The position numbers and the translations under genes were made by a program. Of a stretch of 64,000 nt of DNA, positions 26,675-63,494 are shown piece by piece. Position 1 is the stretch's first letter, and every line of letters begins with the position of its first letter. This DNA is from Chitinophaga vietnamensis. GTDB lineage: Bacteria; Bacteroidota; Bacteroidia; Chitinophagales; Chitinophagaceae. The DNA is taken from positions 558,001 through 622,000 of the forward strand of contig NZ_CABHMS010000002.1 in NCBI RefSeq assembly GCF_902167635.1. Direction: 5' to 3'. The notes under the pieces are model-generated. The model ran no database searches, was not told the DNA's origin, and saw only the letters and a program-made list of their open reading frames with translations.

Positions 26675-29098
26675 ATGTTTAAGAATTATTTCTACGTTGC
26701 ATTACGAAACCTGTGGAAGAACAAAGGATTTTCAGCCATCAATATTTTTGGCCTAGCCATCGGCCTCGCCACCTGCTTGCTGATCATGATCTATGTAACA
26801 GATGAACTAAGTTACGACCGCTATAATGTAAACGCTTCCCGCATCTACCGCATGAATACCGACATCCACTATGGCGGCGAGCTGCACAATTTTGCCACTA
26901 CGCCAGCGCCGCTGGCTGCCACCATGAAGCAAGCTTTCCCGGATGTGGAAGAGGTGACCCGCTTCCGGGTTTATGGTGGATTACAGGTGAGGAAGGGAGC
27001 GGACGACATCAATGAAGAGCATGTAGTATATGCAGATTCCACCCTGTTCCGGGTATTTACCTTGCCACTCATCGCCGGAGATCCGGCTACGGCATTACAG
27101 CTGCCGCGCCATGTGGTACTTACGGAAACGACTGCACGAAAATATTTCAACAGCACGGACGTAGTAGGCCGTACCTTGCTGGTGAACGATTCCGTGAGCT
27201 TTACTGTCAGCGGTGTGATGAAGGATGTGCCGATGCAATCGCATTTCCGCTTCACCTTTTTCGTTTCTATGGCCGGTGTGCCGGAGAGCCGCAACGACCA
27301 ATGGCTCAGTAATAATTTCCAGACATACGTGCTGTTCAAGCCAGGCACCGATCCTGCGAAGGTGCAACAGCGCTTCAGCGGCATGGTCAGCAAATATTGC
27401 GCGCCGCAATTGTCTGCCCTGCTGGGTACTACTTTAGAAGATTTTGAAAAAGGCGGCGACTATTTCCGTTTCAGCATGACGCCGCTCACCGATATACACC
27501 TGTACAGTAACCGAAGCCTGGAGCTGTCTGCCAACAGTTCCATCCAGTACGTCTGGATATTCTCTGCGATCGCGTTGTTCATCCTCCTCATCGCCTGCGT
27601 TAATTTTATGAACCTTTCTACGGCGCGTTCTTCCAACCGTGCGAAGGAAGTAGGTATCCGCAAGGTGATGGGATCACAGCGCGGGCAGCTGATCACGCAG
27701 TTCATTGCAGAATCGGTGATGATCACTTTCATCGCGATGTTGCTGGCCATCGGTATTGCCAGCATAGCGCTGCCGTTCTTCAATCATCTTTCCGGTAAGG
27801 AGCTGAGCGCCGCCATCTTCCTGAAACCTTTGCTGATAGCGGGCCTTCTGGGAGTAGTGATATTAACGGGATTGCTGGCCGGCAGCTATCCGGCATTTTT
27901 CCTGTCGGCCTTCCAGCCGGTATCAGTGCTGAAAGGCGCTGCCAACAAGGGTTTTCGGGCAGGCATATTGCGCAATGTGTTGGTGGTGTTCCAGTTTGGC
28001 ATCTCGGTATTCCTGATCGTGGGCACGCTGGTGATCTATAATCAACTTAATTTTATACGCAACAAAAAAATAGGTTTCGATCGCGACCAGGTGATCGTGT
28101 TGCATCATACTTCTTCTTTGGGCGGTCAGGCCGATGCTTTCCGCCAGGAAGTGCTATCGCTGCCGGGTGTAGCCGGTGGCACGGTTACCGATTATCTGCC
28201 TACCGGCGGCAACACCAATAGTGAACCTATTTTCCTGGAGCCATCGCTCGATCAGAAGAAATCCGTCGTGATGCAGACCTGGTCGGTAGATGATCAATAC
28301 ATTCCTGTGATGAGCATGCAGCTGGCCAAAGGCAGGAACTTCTCCAAAGATTTCCCTACCGATTCATCCGGCGTGATCATCAACGAAGCCGCGGCGCGCC
28401 TGTTGGGGCTGAACGATCCGCTGAACCGTGATCTCTACGAGTTGAATAATATGCATAGCCGCGAATCGACCCGCTTCCATATCGTGGGCGTTGTAAAAGA
28501 TTTTAATTTCAGCTCCCTGCGCGACCAGGTGCAGCCACTGGCGCTATTCCTGCGCCCAAGCGATGGCAATGTAGCTTTCCGTTTCCATACGAAAGATATA
28601 CCCGCCCTGGTAGCCAAAGTAGAAGCAAAATGGCGCGCCATGATGCCCGGCAAACCTTTCAATTATTCTTTTATGGACGACGATTTCAATGCGCAATATA
28701 AATCTGAAGTGCGCGTGGGCCGCATCTCCGTGATCTTCTCGGTGCTGGCAGTGTTGATCGCCTGTCTTGGATTGTTTGGTCTCGCCGCCTATGCCGCCGA
28801 ACAGCGTACCCGCGAAATAGGCATCCGCAAGGTATTAGGCGCCACCACTACCAACATCGTTGACCTGCTGTCCAGAGACTTCCTGAAACTGGTACTGGTA
28901 GCGATATTGCTGGCATCTCCCATCGCCTGGTGGGCGATGCATCGCTGGCTACAGGATTTCGCTTACCGCATCACCATTGGCTGGAGCGTATTTGCCCTGG
29001 CCGCCGTACTGGCCGTACTGATCGCATTACTTACCGTCAGCTTCCAGGCTATAAAGGCCGCAGTGGCCAATCCGGTAAAGAGTTTGAGATCCCAGTGA
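26675..29098 (+). CDS. MacB/FtsX-family ABC transporter permease
   Basis: The 807-residue membrane protein has two repeats of the MacB layout: an N-terminal helix (NIFGLAIGLATCLLIMIYV), a periplasmic MacB_PCD domain, and FtsX helices with ARSSNRAKEVGIRKVMGS, and again EQRTREIGIRKVLGA in the second half. Such 800-residue double permeases are common in Bacteroidota as stand-alone genes. They work with a separate ATPase, which is not in this window. They act in mechanotransmission-type efflux or lipoprotein processes; substrate unknown. Its stop codon is immediately followed by the 198-bp palindrome. Confidence 0.92.
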   Translation: MFKNYFYVALRNLWKNKGFSAINIFGLAIGLATCLLIMIYVTDELSYDRYNVNASRIYRMNTDIHYGGELHNFATTPAPLAATMKQAFPDVEEVTRFRVYGGLQVRKGADDINEEHVVYADSTLFRVFTLPLIAGDPATALQLPRHVVLTETTARKYFNSTDVVGRTLLVNDSVSFTVSGVMKDVPMQSHFRFTFFVSMAGVPESRNDQWLSNNFQTYVLFKPGTDPAKVQQRFSGMVSKYCAPQLSALLGTTLEDFEKGGDYFRFSMTPLTDIHLYSNRSLELSANSSIQYVWIFSAIALFILLIACVNFMNLSTARSSNRAKEVGIRKVMGSQRGQLITQFIAESVMITFIAMLLAIGIASIALPFFNHLSGKELSAAIFLKPLLIAGLLGVVILTGLLAGSYPAFFLSAFQPVSVLKGAANKGFRAGILRNVLVVFQFGISVFLIVGTLVIYNQLNFIRNKKIGFDRDQVIVLHHTSSLGGQADAFRQEVLSLPGVAGGTVTDYLPTGGNTNSEPIFLEPSLDQKKSVVMQTWSVDDQYIPVMSMQLAKGRNFSKDFPTDSSGVIINEAAARLLGLNDPLNRDLYELNNMHSRESTRFHIVGVVKDFNFSSLRDQVQPLALFLRPSDGNVAFRFHTKDIPALVAKVEAKWRAMMPGKPFNYSFMDDDFNAQYKSEVRVGRISVIFSVLAVLIACLGLFGLAAYAAEQRTREIGIRKVLGATTTNIVDLLSRDFLKLVLVAILLASPIAWWAMHRWLQDFAYRITIGWSVFALAAVLAVLIALLTVSFQAIKAAVANPVKSLRSQ

Positions 29099-29296
29099 GG
29101 AGGTTGTCTTTGCTCAGGATTATAATGATTGAAAGGATTACCAGGATTTTTTTACAGGATTGATAAGGATTAAAAAAAGATTCGCGAAGATCAATTCGAA
29201 CTGATCTTCGCGAATCTTTTTTTAATCCTTATCAATCCTGTAAAAAAATCCTGGTAATCCTTTCAATCATTATAATCCTGAGCAAAGACAACCTCC
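29099..29296. repeat. 198-bp near-perfect palindrome between convergent genes
   Basis: Positions i and 58395-i are complementary over the whole element, apart from one pair (29194/29201). The centre is TTCGAA, so there is no real spacer. Arms contain the words GGATTATAATGATT, GAAAGGATTACCAGGATT, ACAGGATTGATAAGGATT and GATTCGCGAAGATCA. It begins one base after the permease stop and ends 6 bp before the TonB receptor stop. It would form a very long RNA hairpin from either strand, and could terminate both genes or be a mobile repeat. Confidence 0.95.
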
Positions 29297-29302
29297 GCGT
29301 GT

Positions 29303-31462
29303 TTAAAACCTTCCCGAGATACCTATATAAAAACTCCTGCCATCAGCTGGAATGATGCCTGGGCCGGGGTATTCGTCGGTTCTTCTGGTGAAATAGGCTT
29401 TGTTGCCAAGATTGTTGACGCCTGCTTTGAGGGCATAGCGTTTGAATTTGTAGGTGGCGCTGATATCGAATACGGTGTAGGCGGGGATGTATCCGGCTAC
29501 GGGGTCTTCGCTGAAGCGGGCATTGGTGGCGTCGCCGTAGGCGTCTCCTACGTTGCTCATCTGGCAGGTGGCGGAGAAGTGGGTGTCGTTGTAGATGAGC
29601 CCTATGCGATGGATGTAGGTGGCGGCAGCTTCAACACGATTGCCTTTGAAGGCGCCGGAAGTGTATTTTGCGTCGGTGTAGCCGAAGGCGTCGAAGATGC
29701 TGAAACCCTTTCTGCTGCCGGGATGCAGGAATTTTAATAAATTAAATTCTGCGTAGCTTTCCAGTCCTTTATGTACGCTGTTAGCGACGTTTGTACGATA
29801 AGTATATTGTTGCTGGTTTTTATCGGTGATCAATACCGTACCGATCCGGTTGTTATAAGCAAGATAGAACAGGCCGATATCGAAATTGAGGTAGTTGGCA
29901 ACGGTGCCTCTGTAACCCAGGTCGGCATTGAATCCTGCGGCATCTTTCATATGAGGGTCTATTTTGGATGTGATGCCGATGGGCGTGAGCTGGGCATAAT
30001 CCACGGGGCGGTATGCCTGGCTGATGTTGGCGTAGACGTTGGTATACTCGCTGGTCTTGTATTCTGCGCCGATGCCGAACAGTGGTATGGTGCGGCTTTT
30101 ACGGTCGTCGGTATATACGCGGGCGCTGTCGGTGATATAACCTTTGGCGGTGCTGCTCAGGTATTCCAGTCGGAAGCCGGGCGTGATAGACAGCGCGCTG
30201 CCGATATGAAAAGTGTTTTCGATAAAGGGCGCAATATTCGTGGTGGTGAAGTCGAGATCATATTCGTAGTCGCCTGTGATGCTTAGGTCGAAATCGCTGC
30301 CGGTGCTGCCTTCGCCGCCGCCTTGCCGTTTGAACCAGGCATAGCTGTAGCGCAGGCCGCCGGCAAGGGCGCCGAAGGAGTAGTGATGCAGCAGGCGGAC
30401 TTCCGTAGTGGTGTTGTGCATATTTTCATTCTGCACTTCTCTGGGGATATAGTGGCCGGTAGCCGGATCGATGGTGTCCAGTGCGCCGGGGCCGCCATCT
30501 TCATTACGCCATACCAGCGCGCGGTTGCTGAACAGGTATACCGATTTGATGTTGAGAGAAGTGGAAGGGGAGAGATGATAATCGATCGTTGCCGCAAGCA
30601 CATTCCACGGGCTTTTGAGCCAGTTGCGGGCGCGGAAAGAGGATTTCGGATCAGCGTTGAACATGCTGTCGTTAAGGCCTCCCGGCATTTTGATCCTGTT
30701 GCGCAGCAGGGAATATTCTACGCCTATTTTCAGTTTTTCAGAAGGAGCATATTGTACTTTTCCATAGCCTGAAAGCTGCCACTGCTGGCTGTTTGGGCGG
30801 TAACCCTGCAAGGTGCGGTATTGCAGGAAGCCGTAGTAGCTCCATTTGTTAATGGTGCCGCCGATGGAGTTGAAAGTATTGAAGAGGCCGAAGCTGCCGG
30901 CAGTTTCGGAAGTATAAAATTCGAAAGGTTTGTTTTTCGGTGGTTCGTTGATTACGTAGTTGACCAGTCCGCCGAACTGTGGTCCGAATTGCAGGGAGGC
31001 GGCGCCTCTCACCATCTCCACACGGCTCACGGCTTCCATGGGAGGGATGTAGTAGGCTTCATTGTAGCCATAGATATCCGAGCTGATATTGTAGCCATTC
31101 TGGCGGGTGTTCATCTCGATGCTCTGTGTAGGATTGAGGCCGCGCGTAGCGATGCCGTTGGCGGTGAAGCCACCGGTTTCGGTTTCCACGATGTTGAGGC
31201 CGGGGATGCGTCCTAATATCTGGCGGGTATTGTTGATGGCTTTGTTGGCATCCAGACTGTCGATCACCACTACTTCATTCTTTTTTCCGGAATAGATGAT
31301 ACCGTCTTTTTCTTCAGGCAGGTGGCCTGTTCCGCGTACGGTGCGGATGCCGCGGATATTTACATCTTTCAGATAACGGACCCTGGTTGAATCGGCATGA
31401 CGCTGTGCGCCTGCAGCCAGTGGCAGCAATACAAAGGGCAGCCACGATAATGATTTGCTCAT
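29303..31462 (-). CDS. FecA-like TonB-dependent receptor
   Basis: Start MSKSLSWLPFVLLPLAAGAQ gives 719 residues with a signal peptide; a frame extension of 15 codons upstream was rejected. There is no STN domain and no carboxypeptidase-like domain. The plug starts near residue 60 (AINNTRQILGRIPGLNIVET, then RVEMVRGAASLQFGPQFGG), and the barrel ends in aromatic GRSFYIGISGRF. The plug motifs match Fe(III)-dicitrate and other siderophore receptors, so iron-chelate uptake is likely. It stands alone with no sigma/FecR pair. It ends against the 198-bp palindrome. Confidence 0.9.
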   Translation of the reverse strand: MSKSLSWLPFVLLPLAAGAQRHADSTRVRYLKDVNIRGIRTVRGTGHLPEEKDGIIYSGKKNEVVVIDSLDANKAINNTRQILGRIPGLNIVETETGGFTANGIATRGLNPTQSIEMNTRQNGYNISSDIYGYNEAYYIPPMEAVSRVEMVRGAASLQFGPQFGGLVNYVINEPPKNKPFEFYTSETAGSFGLFNTFNSIGGTINKWSYYGFLQYRTLQGYRPNSQQWQLSGYGKVQYAPSEKLKIGVEYSLLRNRIKMPGGLNDSMFNADPKSSFRARNWLKSPWNVLAATIDYHLSPSTSLNIKSVYLFSNRALVWRNEDGGPGALDTIDPATGHYIPREVQNENMHNTTTEVRLLHHYSFGALAGGLRYSYAWFKRQGGGEGSTGSDFDLSITGDYEYDLDFTTTNIAPFIENTFHIGSALSITPGFRLEYLSSTAKGYITDSARVYTDDRKSRTIPLFGIGAEYKTSEYTNVYANISQAYRPVDYAQLTPIGITSKIDPHMKDAAGFNADLGYRGTVANYLNFDIGLFYLAYNNRIGTVLITDKNQQQYTYRTNVANSVHKGLESYAEFNLLKFLHPGSRKGFSIFDAFGYTDAKYTSGAFKGNRVEAAATYIHRIGLIYNDTHFSATCQMSNVGDAYGDATNARFSEDPVAGYIPAYTVFDISATYKFKRYALKAGVNNLGNKAYFTRRTDEYPGPGIIPADGRSFYIGISGRF

Positions 31463-31627
31463 AATGTCAATTGTGTTGCAAAATTCGCAAGTCGTTGCAG
31501 GCGCCAATGATCAAAAGCGGAAAAAGAAATACGCGATCGGGAAAAAAGGCCGCCAGTATTAGAATGCGCTTAAATTCAGCTTAAAAAATGATTTTTTCTT
31601 ACCTTAAAGAAAAAATAGCGCCGATCC

Positions 31628-32401
31628 ATGAAGATAGCGACCTACAATGTGAATGGTGTGAATGGCCATTTGCCCGTTTTGTTACAATGGCTGGAGCAAG
31701 CCTCGCCTGATGTGGTATGTCTGCAAGAGCTGAAGGCGCCGCAGGAGAAATTCCCGGAGCAGGCGATCCGCGATGCCGGTTATCATCCCTTATGGCATGG
31801 GCAGAAAAGCTGGAATGGCGTGGCGATCCTCGCCAAGAGCGGCCTGCCGCAGGAGCGGCGGCGCGTGTTGCCCGGCGATGAAGAAGATACGCATAGCCGC
31901 TATATCGAAGCCGATATTGATGGCATGATCGTAGGCTGTCTGTACCTGCCTAATGGCAATCCTGCGCCAGGACCCAAGTTCGACTACAAGCTCGGCTGGC
32001 TCAAACGTTTTACCGCGCATGCAAAAGAGCTGATCACTTCTCCCACGCCTGTAGTGCTCACCGGCGATTACAATATCATCCCTACCAACAACGACGTATA
32101 TAAACCCGAGAAATGGGTAGATGATGCGCTCTTCCGCCCGGAAGTGCGCGAGGCCTTCCAGCAACTGCTTGCCCAGGGCTGGACAGACGCCATCCGTCAA
32201 TTCTATCCCACCGAAAAGATCTATACCTTCTGGGATTATTTCCGCAATGCCTATGGCCGCGATGCCGGTTTGCGTATCGATCATTTCCTGCTCAGCCCCG
32301 GGCTGGACAAGCGTCTTACCGCTGCCGGCGTGGACCGGTTTGTACGTGGATGGGAAAAGTCGAGTGATCATGCGCCGGTGTGGATTGAGTTGAAAGGGTA
32401 G
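31628..32401 (+). CDS. xth: Exodeoxyribonuclease III / AP endonuclease
   Basis: The 257-residue protein matches the ExoIII family end to end. It begins MKIATYNVNGVNGH, has the metal-binding glutamate in VVCLQELKAP (E34), the LTGDYNIIPTNNDVY active-site strand, the YTFWDYFRNAYGRDAGLRIDHFLLS block, and the final SSDHAPVW catalytic histidine motif. It cleaves DNA at abasic sites in base-excision repair and degrades 3' ends. Single-gene transcript; nothing odd is seen. Confidence 0.96.
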   Translation: MKIATYNVNGVNGHLPVLLQWLEQASPDVVCLQELKAPQEKFPEQAIRDAGYHPLWHGQKSWNGVAILAKSGLPQERRRVLPGDEEDTHSRYIEADIDGMIVGCLYLPNGNPAPGPKFDYKLGWLKRFTAHAKELITSPTPVVLTGDYNIIPTNNDVYKPEKWVDDALFRPEVREAFQQLLAQGWTDAIRQFYPTEKIYTFWDYFRNAYGRDAGLRIDHFLLSPGLDKRLTAAGVDRFVRGWEKSSDHAPVWIELKG

Positions 32402-45071: not shown

Positions 45072-45587
45072 ATGAAAAGAACACCATGGTTCGAAAGAAA
45101 ATTCCCGTTGATCGATGATAACGGCACTTTGCCATCCATCATTGAACGTTTGAGCGGCACGCCTGCGAGGGCAGAAGAGATCGCAAGCCAGCTCGATCCC
45201 GATATATTGAATATCAAACCAGATGGCAGATGGTCCATCAAAGAAGAAATAGGCCACCTCGGCGATCTGGAATCACTATGGTTCGGCCGCCTGGAAGACC
45301 TGGAAAACGGCCTCACTGAATTACGTGCAGCCGATCTCACCAACCAACGCACACACGAAGCTCATCACAACGATACCGATGTAGCCATCCTCCTGCAACG
45401 TTTCCGGGAACAGCGGCAGCGTTTCGTGAACCGCCTCCTGGCCCTCACCGATACACAACTGCAACATAGCGCGCTGCATCCCCGCTTACGCACCCCCATG
45501 CGCATCGTTGACCTGGCATATTTCGTAGCGGAGCACGATGATCATCATTTGGCGGCGGTGCGAATTTTGTCTTACTCAGGATTATAA
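45072..45587 (+). CDS. DinB-family protein
   Basis: The 171-residue protein has the DinB/YfiT four-helix pattern with three spaced histidine sites: WSIKEEIGHLGDLE, THEAHHNDTD and VAEHDDHHLAAVR. These could bind a metal, as in bacillithiol-dependent transferases. The exact reaction is unknown. Its last codons and stop (SYSGL-stop) are encoded by the AGGATT-type repeat at 45569, so its C-terminus may have been changed by the repeat. Confidence 0.85.
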   Translation: MKRTPWFERKFPLIDDNGTLPSIIERLSGTPARAEEIASQLDPDILNIKPDGRWSIKEEIGHLGDLESLWFGRLEDLENGLTELRAADLTNQRTHEAHHNDTDVAILLQRFREQRQRFVNRLLALTDTQLQHSALHPRLRTPMRIVDLAYFVAEHDDHHLAAVRILSYSGL

Positions 45588-45644
45588 GGATTGAAAGGAT
45601 TACCAGGATTTTTTTACAGGATTAATAAGGATTTATGAAGATCA
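45569..45644. repeat. Half copy of the AGGATT palindrome family
   Basis: About 70 bp match the left arm of the 29099 palindrome: CTCAGGATTATAAGGATT, GAAAGGATTACCAGGATT, ACAGGATTAATAAGGATT and GAAGATCA. No right arm follows, so it cannot fold as the full copies do. It supplies the stop codon of the DinB gene (45585-45587). Confidence 0.85.
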
Positions 45645-51586: not shown

Positions 51587-51696
51587 GAATTTTTTGATTT
51601 AGGAATTTCTTGATTTACGAATTTAGGGATTTAGTTTCCAGGAGAATTTTCCTGGAAACTAAATCCCTAAATTCGTAAATCAAAAAATTCCTAAAT
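51581..51696. repeat. 116-bp palindrome spanning a stop and a start codon
   Basis: The right arm (51651-51696, 46 bp) is the exact complement of the left arm once one 16-bp unit (51602-51617) is removed. The left arm is built of 16-bp units ATTTAGGAATTTTTTG, ATTTAGGAATTTCTTG and ATTTACGAATTTAGGG, and the loop is 8 bases. The OmpA stop codon and the A and T of the GNAT start codon both lie in it. Confidence 0.94.
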
Positions 51697-63315: not shown

Positions 63316-63494
63316 CTCATGATTATATGATTAAAAGGATTACCAGGATTTTCGAATTTTTTGATTTACGGATTTTTTGATTTAATTGAAGCGGAGATAA
63401 TAACATTATTCGTCTTCGCTTCAATTAAATCAAAAAATCCGTAAATCAAAAAATTCGAAAATCCTGGTAATCCTTTTAATCATATAATCATGAG
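63316..63494. repeat. 179-bp palindrome, mosaic of the other two families
   Basis: Arms 63316-63397 and 63413-63494 (82 bp each) pair with one mismatch (63394/63416) around a 15-base loop. The outer part shares AAGGATTACCAGGATT with the 29099 element. The inner part shares GAATTTTTTGATTTA with the 51581 element. It lies 5 bp from one stop codon and 3 bp from the other. Confidence 0.94.

What the first reader, a model, noticed from the sequence alone, without database searches (positions are those of the whole stretch)
29099..29296. 198-bp palindrome with one mismatched pair and no spacer
All but one of 99 base pairs match by direct reading, and the centre is TTCGAA. Perfect palindromes of this length are normally unstable in bacteria because they extrude as cruciforms and are cut by SbcCD-type nucleases. 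It fills the gap between two convergent genes exactly, starting one base after one stop codon and ending 6 bp before the other. It could be a two-way terminator, a structured RNA 3' end, or a replicating repeat.
Basis: seen in the sequence. Interest (0 to 1): 0.78.

Follow-up and report, generated by a model that had tools for sequence, protein, structure and literature searches.

The report
Long mirror-image repeats at gene ends
A near-perfect 198-letter DNA palindrome between two genes proves to be one of many long palindromes that sit just behind genes in this Chitinophaga genome, with arms that change together, in a species where the nuclease part SbcD, which helps destroy such structures elsewhere, was not found.

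Summary
The 198-bp palindrome is real: 99-bp arms, one mismatched pair, no spacer. It is one of many. In 1.96 Mb (31%) of its own genome, a Chitinophaga, I find 153 inverted repeats with arms of 24 bp or more; 102 fall into five repeat families with arms built of 7-, 8- or 9-bp units. They lie between genes, mostly within 10 nt of a stop codon, favour convergent pairs and avoid divergent ones. In relatives the matching slot holds the same family, another family, a plain hairpin or nothing. Variants, including length variants, are shared by both arms of a copy far beyond chance, and mismatches show no RNA-wobble bias: this points to arm-to-arm DNA copying. SbcD, part of the palindrome nuclease, was found neither here nor in the 10 other species rich in family B. 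Best reading: dispersed palindromic repeats that occupy terminator slots, symmetrised by DNA copying and tolerated without SbcCD. Terminator function is inferred: only 26 of 102 pass a terminator criterion. How copies spread is not shown.

The parts
29099..29296 (.). the palindrome itself: a family A element (my label), 99-bp arms, one mismatched pair, no spacer
   Evidence: family membership
29099..29197 (+). left arm, with AGGATT units about 9 nt apart
29198..29296 (-). right arm, mirror of the left
29176..29219 (.). terminator-like core at the centre: A-tract, stem, T-tract
   Evidence: own criterion, both strands; tool scan, minus strand only
26675..29098 (+). upstream gene, ABC-transporter permease-like (best NCBIfam hits below their cut-offs); its stop codon abuts the palindrome
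29303..31507 (-). convergent gene, TonB-dependent receptor-like (best NCBIfam hits below their cut-offs); its stop codon is 6 bp from the palindrome
45572..45633 (+). half an element: a family A arm (95% identical over 62 nt) without its mirror
51597..51696 (.). family B palindrome, 47-bp arms, one mismatch, 6-nt spacer
63316..63494 (.). hybrid palindrome: family A outside, family B inside, joined alike in both arms; 82-bp arms, one mismatch, 15-nt spacer

Best explanation
The palindrome is one copy of a dispersed, non-coding palindromic repeat that occupies transcription-terminator slots in a Chitinophaga genome. SHOWN: copies are numerous; they lie between genes close to stop codons and favour convergent pairs; the matching slot in relatives holds the same family, another family, a plain hairpin or nothing; both arms of a copy share the same variants, including length variants; SbcD was not found. 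INFERRED: (1) transcripts from either side fold into a very long hairpin that ends or protects the transcript, so an element can stand in for the native terminator at little cost; (2) the arms are made or kept alike by DNA self-templating, a 3' end folding back at the hairpin and copying its own arm (template switching), which would also explain hybrid palindromes with the same junction in both arms; (3) lack of SbcCD lets such long palindromes persist. How a copy reaches a new slot is not shown.
For: Copy number: 64 forward and 59 reverse 15-mer hits, reversed control 0 and 0; 102 family A-E elements in 1.96 Mb. Position: 42 convergent, 57 tandem, 3 divergent against 220, 1012, 220 gene pairs (p 2e-13); 124 of 198 stop-to-palindrome distances within 10 nt. 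Ordinary hairpins use the same slot, in 35 of 42 and 20 of 26 element-free convergent gaps. Orthologous slots: 15 same family, 9 plain hairpin, 5 no hairpin, 4 another family, of 33 rows. Shared alleles on both arms: 25 of 27, 36 of 39, 39 of 40, 28 of 40, 31 of 39 against 7.6, 4.7, 25.9, 4.2, 6.1 expected. No wobble bias: 49 G-U and 41 A-C on the sense strand, p 0.46. SbcD: 0 of 11 family-B-rich genomes, 24 of 68 others (confirmed with a second query).
Against: Only 14 of 102 elements meet my terminator criterion on both strands and 12 on one; 76 do not. The SbcD tie is weak (p 0.029), not corrected for kinship, not significant for motif C (2 of 15 against 22 of 64, p 0.13), and 44 genomes lack both SbcD and abundant B. 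The wobble test is small. Arm sharing does not tell copying at birth from later arm-to-arm conversion. Family B arms carry more mismatches (133 in 2277 pairs) than family A (30 in 2068). Orthologue rows are biased to family B and not independent. No RNA data.
Confidence: 0.55

Rival explanations
1. They are REP- or MITE-like elements moved in trans by a Y1 (IS200-type, single-strand) transposase that recognises hairpins; their place behind genes is where insertions do least harm.
For: One Y1_Tnp gene in the genome. A good Y1 match (E below 1e-20) is found in 8 of 11 family-B-rich genomes and 6 of 68 others (p 1.5e-5, not corrected for kinship). Of 9 genomes with Y1 and no SbcD, 8 are B-rich; of 5 with both, 0. 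REP-like hairpins R sit at the exact centre of 13 family A elements, as if inserted at hairpin tips.
Against: The own Y1 gene is flanked by arrays of a different GC-rich repeat and its 3.3-kb locus holds no family A, B or C motif. Three of 11 B-rich genomes have no Y1 match. No clear target-site duplications: 7 of 103 against 5.5 expected, though the mean length is slightly raised (p 0.02); IS200-type insertion would make none. It does not explain why variants are the same on both arms.
Confidence: 0.25
2. Selection on RNA pairing alone keeps the arms alike: strong 3' hairpins evolve by compensatory changes.
For: Position at gene 3' ends; very stable predicted fold, about -163 kcal/mol for this copy.
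Against: No excess of G-U over A-C mismatches on the sense strand (49 and 41, p 0.46) and mismatches evenly spread along the arm; length variants shared by both arms.
Confidence: 0.12
3. Assembly artefact.
For: Contig ends of C3, C4, C5 and C13 lie in or within 75 nt of family A sequence.
Against: Many copies with different spacers and flanks; same families in two single-contig congeners, 4 and 7 family A-E elements in 200 kb each; intact convergent genes on both sides.
Confidence: 0.03

Closest known systems
YPAL / RU-2, Yersinia palindromic sequences (PMC2229807, passages seen)
   Same: Dispersed intergenic repeat of about 168 bp; [quoted passage not shown] filled and empty sites known between close species.
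   Different: YPAL is described there with target-site duplications of 3-26 bp, internal inverted repeats and not A+T-rich; here arms run to the ends, no clear duplications, several A+T-rich families.
REP / BIME / REPIN (PMC3733652, abstract and passages seen)
   Same: Palindromic, many copies, mostly downstream of and between tandem or convergent genes.
   Different: REPs are 20-40 bp; that paper takes frequent G-T pairs in stems as a sign of RNA function, whereas here G-U is not in excess. A classical REP-like repeat (my F) is present separately, beside the Y1 gene.
GTAG-15 dimers inserted in long palindromes of Anabaena variabilis (PMC3733652, one passage seen)
   Same: REP-like pair nested in a longer palindrome, as R in family A.
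   Different: Other phylum and sequences; only a consensus is given in the passage.
Neisseria DNA uptake sequences in inverted pairs (PMC3388099, passages seen)
   Same: Dispersed repeat whose inverted pairs sit downstream of genes, some serving as terminators.
   Different: A fixed short word for DNA uptake; here 35-100-bp arms of several unrelated families.
Quasi-palindrome correction by template switching (recalled, no call)
   Same: Turns imperfect into perfect inverted repeats by copying one arm.
   Different: Known as a mutation process at single sites; here many dispersed copies would be affected.

Membership tests
REP / REPIN with RAYT | short (20-40 bp) palindromic unit | tested here: not met
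   median arm 74.5 nt in family A, 45 in B, 43 in C
REP / REPIN with RAYT | repeat flanks the associated Y1 transposase gene | tested here: not met
   own Y1 locus L018 has another repeat and no A, B or C motif
REP / REPIN with RAYT | transposase is of the REP-associated type | tested here: not met
   IS200 model 75.5 bits (cut-off 55), REP_Tyr_transpos 31 bits (cut-off 80)
REP / REPIN with RAYT | mostly between tandem or convergent genes | tested here: met
   57 tandem, 42 convergent, 3 divergent of 102
MITE with terminal inverted repeats | target-site duplication | tested here: not met
   7 of 103 with 4 nt or more, 5.5 expected; mean length slightly raised, p 0.02
YPAL / RU-2 | sequence relationship to YPAL | not tested
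   no YPAL sequence was fetched
YPAL / RU-2 | occupies sites of dyad symmetry | tested here: met
   plain hairpins in 9 of 33 orthologous slots
intrinsic transcription terminator | GC stem followed by a T-tract | tested here: inconclusive
   this copy yes on both strands by own criterion; 26 of 102 on at least one strand, shuffles 0 of 135; tool scan one strand, 0.5 expected
intrinsic transcription terminator | ends transcripts in the cell | not testable with these tools
   no RNA data
known RNA family | Rfam match at gathering score | tested here: not met
   0 matches in the window

The most novel reading that the evidence does not exclude
A repeat that multiplies without a transposase of its own: during replication a 3' end stalled at a terminator hairpin copies one arm of an element elsewhere, folds back, copies that arm again, and so overwrites the native terminator with a fresh, perfect palindrome. 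Loss of SbcCD opens the way, and the genome's terminators are progressively replaced by self-symmetrising palindromes.
Probability: 0.22. Interest if true: 0.85.

Novelty: new variant of a known kind. Interest (0 to 1): 0.6.

Why it matters
Long perfect palindromes are held to be unstable in bacterial chromosomes because SbcCD cuts them (established knowledge, recalled). Here they are numerous, lie where genes end, and their two arms share even length changes, in a species in which SbcD was not found. If this holds, Chitinophaga is a natural test bed for how palindromes arise and are symmetrised, for whether loss of SbcCD is what permits them, and for repeats that spread by taking over terminators.

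Tried and rejected
Rfam on the window: no match. Similar DNA in the plasmid and phage collections: none. Viral contigs: none for two exact family motifs. RAYT-type origin: the only Y1 gene is flanked by another repeat; kept as a rival because of the correlation. Target-site duplication: not clear. RNA pairing as keeper of the arms: no wobble bias. Idea that the 7-9-nt periods supply stop codons in all frames: rejected, elements reach stops in all three frames later (median 70.5 nt) than shuffled ones (57). Empty site of this very copy: in 7 congeners (L080-L086) the permease gene is found at about 62-64% protein identity, but within the 1.5-kb flanks held there is no TonB receptor and no palindrome, so there is no clean empty site for this copy.

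Literature: four searches naming Chitinophaga or Bacteroidetes with palindromes, inverted repeats or REP listed no paper that I recognised as describing these elements (searches listed none; one search listed three by title and abstract start). Not in print is claimed no wider than that.

Limits: genes come from a simple ORF caller of my own; 'between genes' there means that the midpoint lies outside called genes; family labels A-F and R are mine. Orthologue comparisons lean to family B because 65 loci were fetched with a B motif, and some rows are reciprocal; of 39 rows the 6 that start from an unclassified repeat were left out of the tally. In one search, 55 of 86 arms had a recognisable outer end, and no chance control was run for their distance to stop triplets. 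In one search, 78 of 86 arms were kept and 72 had a partner; with flanks included the own arm was nearest in 45 of 72. One search left out family F. SbcC was not searched.

Full report
OBSERVATION. The 198-bp palindrome at 29099-29296 is exact but for one pair (29194 A, 29201 C), has no spacer, and its centre is TTCGAA at 29195-29200. It begins on the base after the stop codon of a permease-like gene (26675-29098, +) and ends 6 bp before the stop codon of a convergent TonB-receptor-like gene (29303-31507, -) (the best NCBIfam hits of both are below their cut-offs). The next zero-spacer palindrome in the window with at most one mismatch has 37-bp arms. One mononucleotide shuffle of 1.098 Mb of the same genome yields 0 inverted repeats with arms of 24 bp or more, against 101 in the real sequence with the same settings.

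IT IS A FAMILY. The window lies in a 6.31-Mb genome of 15 contigs. A blastn-type search with the palindrome gave 80 matches on the two strands, with 40 of 133 candidates scored; the best other copy is 94% identical. The 15-mer AGGATTACCAGGATT occurs 64 times forward and 59 reverse here, 0 and 0 for the reversed control, but in only 5 of 78 other genomes of the genus, four of them once and one four times, and in 7 of 198 genomes of an order-wide sample, this one included. An exact 40-letter pattern was not found in the named species collection (the own genome may be left out there).

I scanned contig C1 (1.098 Mb) and 0.86 Mb of contig C2: 102 and 51 inverted repeats with arms of at least 24 bp. 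My labels: A (AGGATT units, 28 elements; this one), B (GATTT units, 47), C (AATTACG units, 12), D (TATTTGG units, 6), E (GCAAAG units, 4), 5 mixed, F (GC-rich, REP-like, 18), 33 unclassified. Self-comparison of arms peaks at a shift of 9 nt in A, 8 in B, D and E, and 7 in C. A-E with the mixed ones are 102; 34 have perfect arms and 58 at most one mismatch. The longest family A arms are 101, 99, 98, 97, 96, 96, 95 and 94 bp, so the reported copy is among the best but not unique.

PLACE. The midpoint of none of the 153 lies inside a gene as I called them; 57 are convergent, 84 tandem, 12 divergent. For A-E it is 42, 57 and 3, against 220, 1012 and 220 gene pairs (chi-square p 2e-13). The distance from stop codon to palindrome has a median of 2 nt (C1) and 4.5 nt (C2), and 124 of 198 distances are within 10 nt either way. 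Of 55 family A arms with a recognisable outer end (of 86), 41 start 0-4 nt after a stop triplet in some frame (no chance control). Ordinary hairpins in element-free convergent gaps of 20-160 bp use the same place: found in 35 of 42 and 20 of 26 such gaps, 0 in shuffles, starting a median 8 and 9 nt from the stop.

RELATIVES. In two congeners assembled as one contig each, 200 kb of G271 hold 9 inverted repeats (4 of family B, 5 unclassified) and 200 kb of G228 hold 10 (5 C, 1 B, 1 E, 3 unclassified); 6 of 11 and 10 of 14 distances to stops are within 10 nt. Of 20 congeners sampled with 20 kb each, 15 had none and 5 had 8 in all. Motif B reaches 10 hits or more in 11 of 79 genomes (reversed control up to 23, in G258) and motif C 20 or more in 15 of 79; in G216 many C hits come from one tandem array. 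Of 39 matching-site rows, 33 start from an A-E element: the other genome has the same family in 15, a plain hairpin in 9, no hairpin in 5, another A-E family in 4. Some plain states read as ordinary two-way terminators, such as AAAAAAGCCCTCACGCTAAGCGTGAGGGCTTTTC. These rows lean to family B and some are reciprocal. One pair (L230, C. fulva; L253, C. eiseniae) sets an element against a 3-nt gap. Target-site duplications do not stand out: 7 of 103 with 4 nt or more, 5.5 expected, though the mean length is slightly raised (p 0.02).

HOW THE ARMS STAY ALIKE. In 40 family A elements with both arms found, five variable sites carry the same allele on both arms in 25 of 27, 36 of 39, 39 of 40, 28 of 40 and 31 of 39 cases, against 7.6, 4.7, 25.9, 4.2 and 6.1 expected from allele frequencies. 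Several alleles differ in length. Within the element an arm's own partner is its nearest relative in 54 of 72 cases (identity 0.94 against 0.82 to other arms); with outer flanks included, 45 of 72. If RNA pairing were the keeper, G-U mismatches should outnumber A-C on the transcribed strand; for tandem genes they are 49 and 41 (p 0.46), and mismatches are spread evenly along the arm (154 repeats of C1, C2, G271 and G228, family F left out). The test is small. Hybrid elements with A outside and B inside, joined alike in both arms (63316-63494 in the window; 3 of 102 in all), also ask for a step that copies one arm into the other. I infer fold-back or template-switch copying of DNA; that this turns imperfect into perfect palindromes is recalled from work on E. 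coli and phage, not from a call. Copying at birth and later conversion cannot be told apart here.

NESTING. A REP-like hairpin, R (AGCCCTTGAAGCGCT, 4-nt loop, mirror), occurs 15 times in C1 and 15 in C2. In 13 family A elements it sits at the centre (offset 0 to 1.5 nt, once 4), 1 more is central in an unclassified element, 4 form two inverted pairs, and 12 lie outside listed elements; it comes in either orientation. A comparable nesting is mentioned for Anabaena variabilis (PMC3733652, passage).

WHY THEY SURVIVE. SbcD (TIGR00619) gives no match in this genome nor in the other 10 B-rich genomes; over the cut-off it is in 24 of 79, all among the other 68 (Fisher p 0.029). A search with a Chitinophaga SbcD protein agrees: 25 of 79 match, none of the 11. 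This is not corrected for kinship, is not significant for motif C (2 of 15 against 22 of 64, p 0.13), and lack of SbcD is not enough, since 44 genomes lack SbcD without abundant B. SbcC was not searched. A lead found late: a good Y1 transposase match is in 8 of 11 B-rich genomes and 6 of 68 others (p 1.5e-5); of 9 genomes with Y1 and no SbcD, 8 are B-rich; of 5 with both, none. The own Y1 gene, however, is surrounded by another repeat and fits the IS200 model, not the REP-associated one.

FUNCTION. This copy has an A-tract - stem - T-tract core that meets my criterion on both strands and a predicted RNA fold of about -163 kcal/mol; the tool's scan lists the core on the minus strand only, 0.5 sites being expected by chance. 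By my criterion 14 of 102 A-E elements qualify on both strands, 12 on one and 76 on neither; 0 of 135 shuffled sequences do. So 'two-way terminator' is fair for this copy and plausible by position for the rest, not shown.

VERDICT. Observation confirmed, interpretation partly right. It is a new variant of the known kind 'dispersed intergenic palindromic repeat', nearest in habit to YPAL (PMC2229807, passages) and REP (PMC3733652, abstract and passages), set apart by arm length and near-perfection, several unrelated short-period families in one genome, use of terminator slots, symmetric length variants, and the missing SbcD.

Noticed in passing
L018 (G000:C4:220711-224055): The genome's only Y1 transposase gene (IS200 type by model) is flanked on both sides by tandem arrays of a GC-rich REP-like repeat (CGCCCC...GGTAGC), the F family of this report.
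   Followed up: partly
C1 and C2 of the own genome, e.g. C1:477225 and C1:870246: R: a REP-like hairpin AGCCCTTGAAGCGCT nested at the exact centre of 13 family A palindromes, also alone and in inverted pairs.
   Followed up: partly
window 45572-45633: A family A arm without its mirror, followed by a GC-rich REP-like stretch: half an element, perhaps a deletion product or precursor.
   Followed up: no
G216:C3:541427-541543: A long perfect tandem array of the 7-nt unit AATTACG on one strand in a congener, so motif C also exists as plain tandem repeat.
   Followed up: no
C1:462002, C1:912229 and C1:477154 of the own genome: Outermost parts of some family A elements are small GC-rich hairpins (such as GCTCGCTTCGCTCGCG) in place of the usual GCGAAGGTTGTC end, sometimes on one side only.
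   Followed up: no
window 31628-32401: Exodeoxyribonuclease III gene (over the NCBIfam cut-off) close to the palindrome; taken as ordinary.
   Followed up: no
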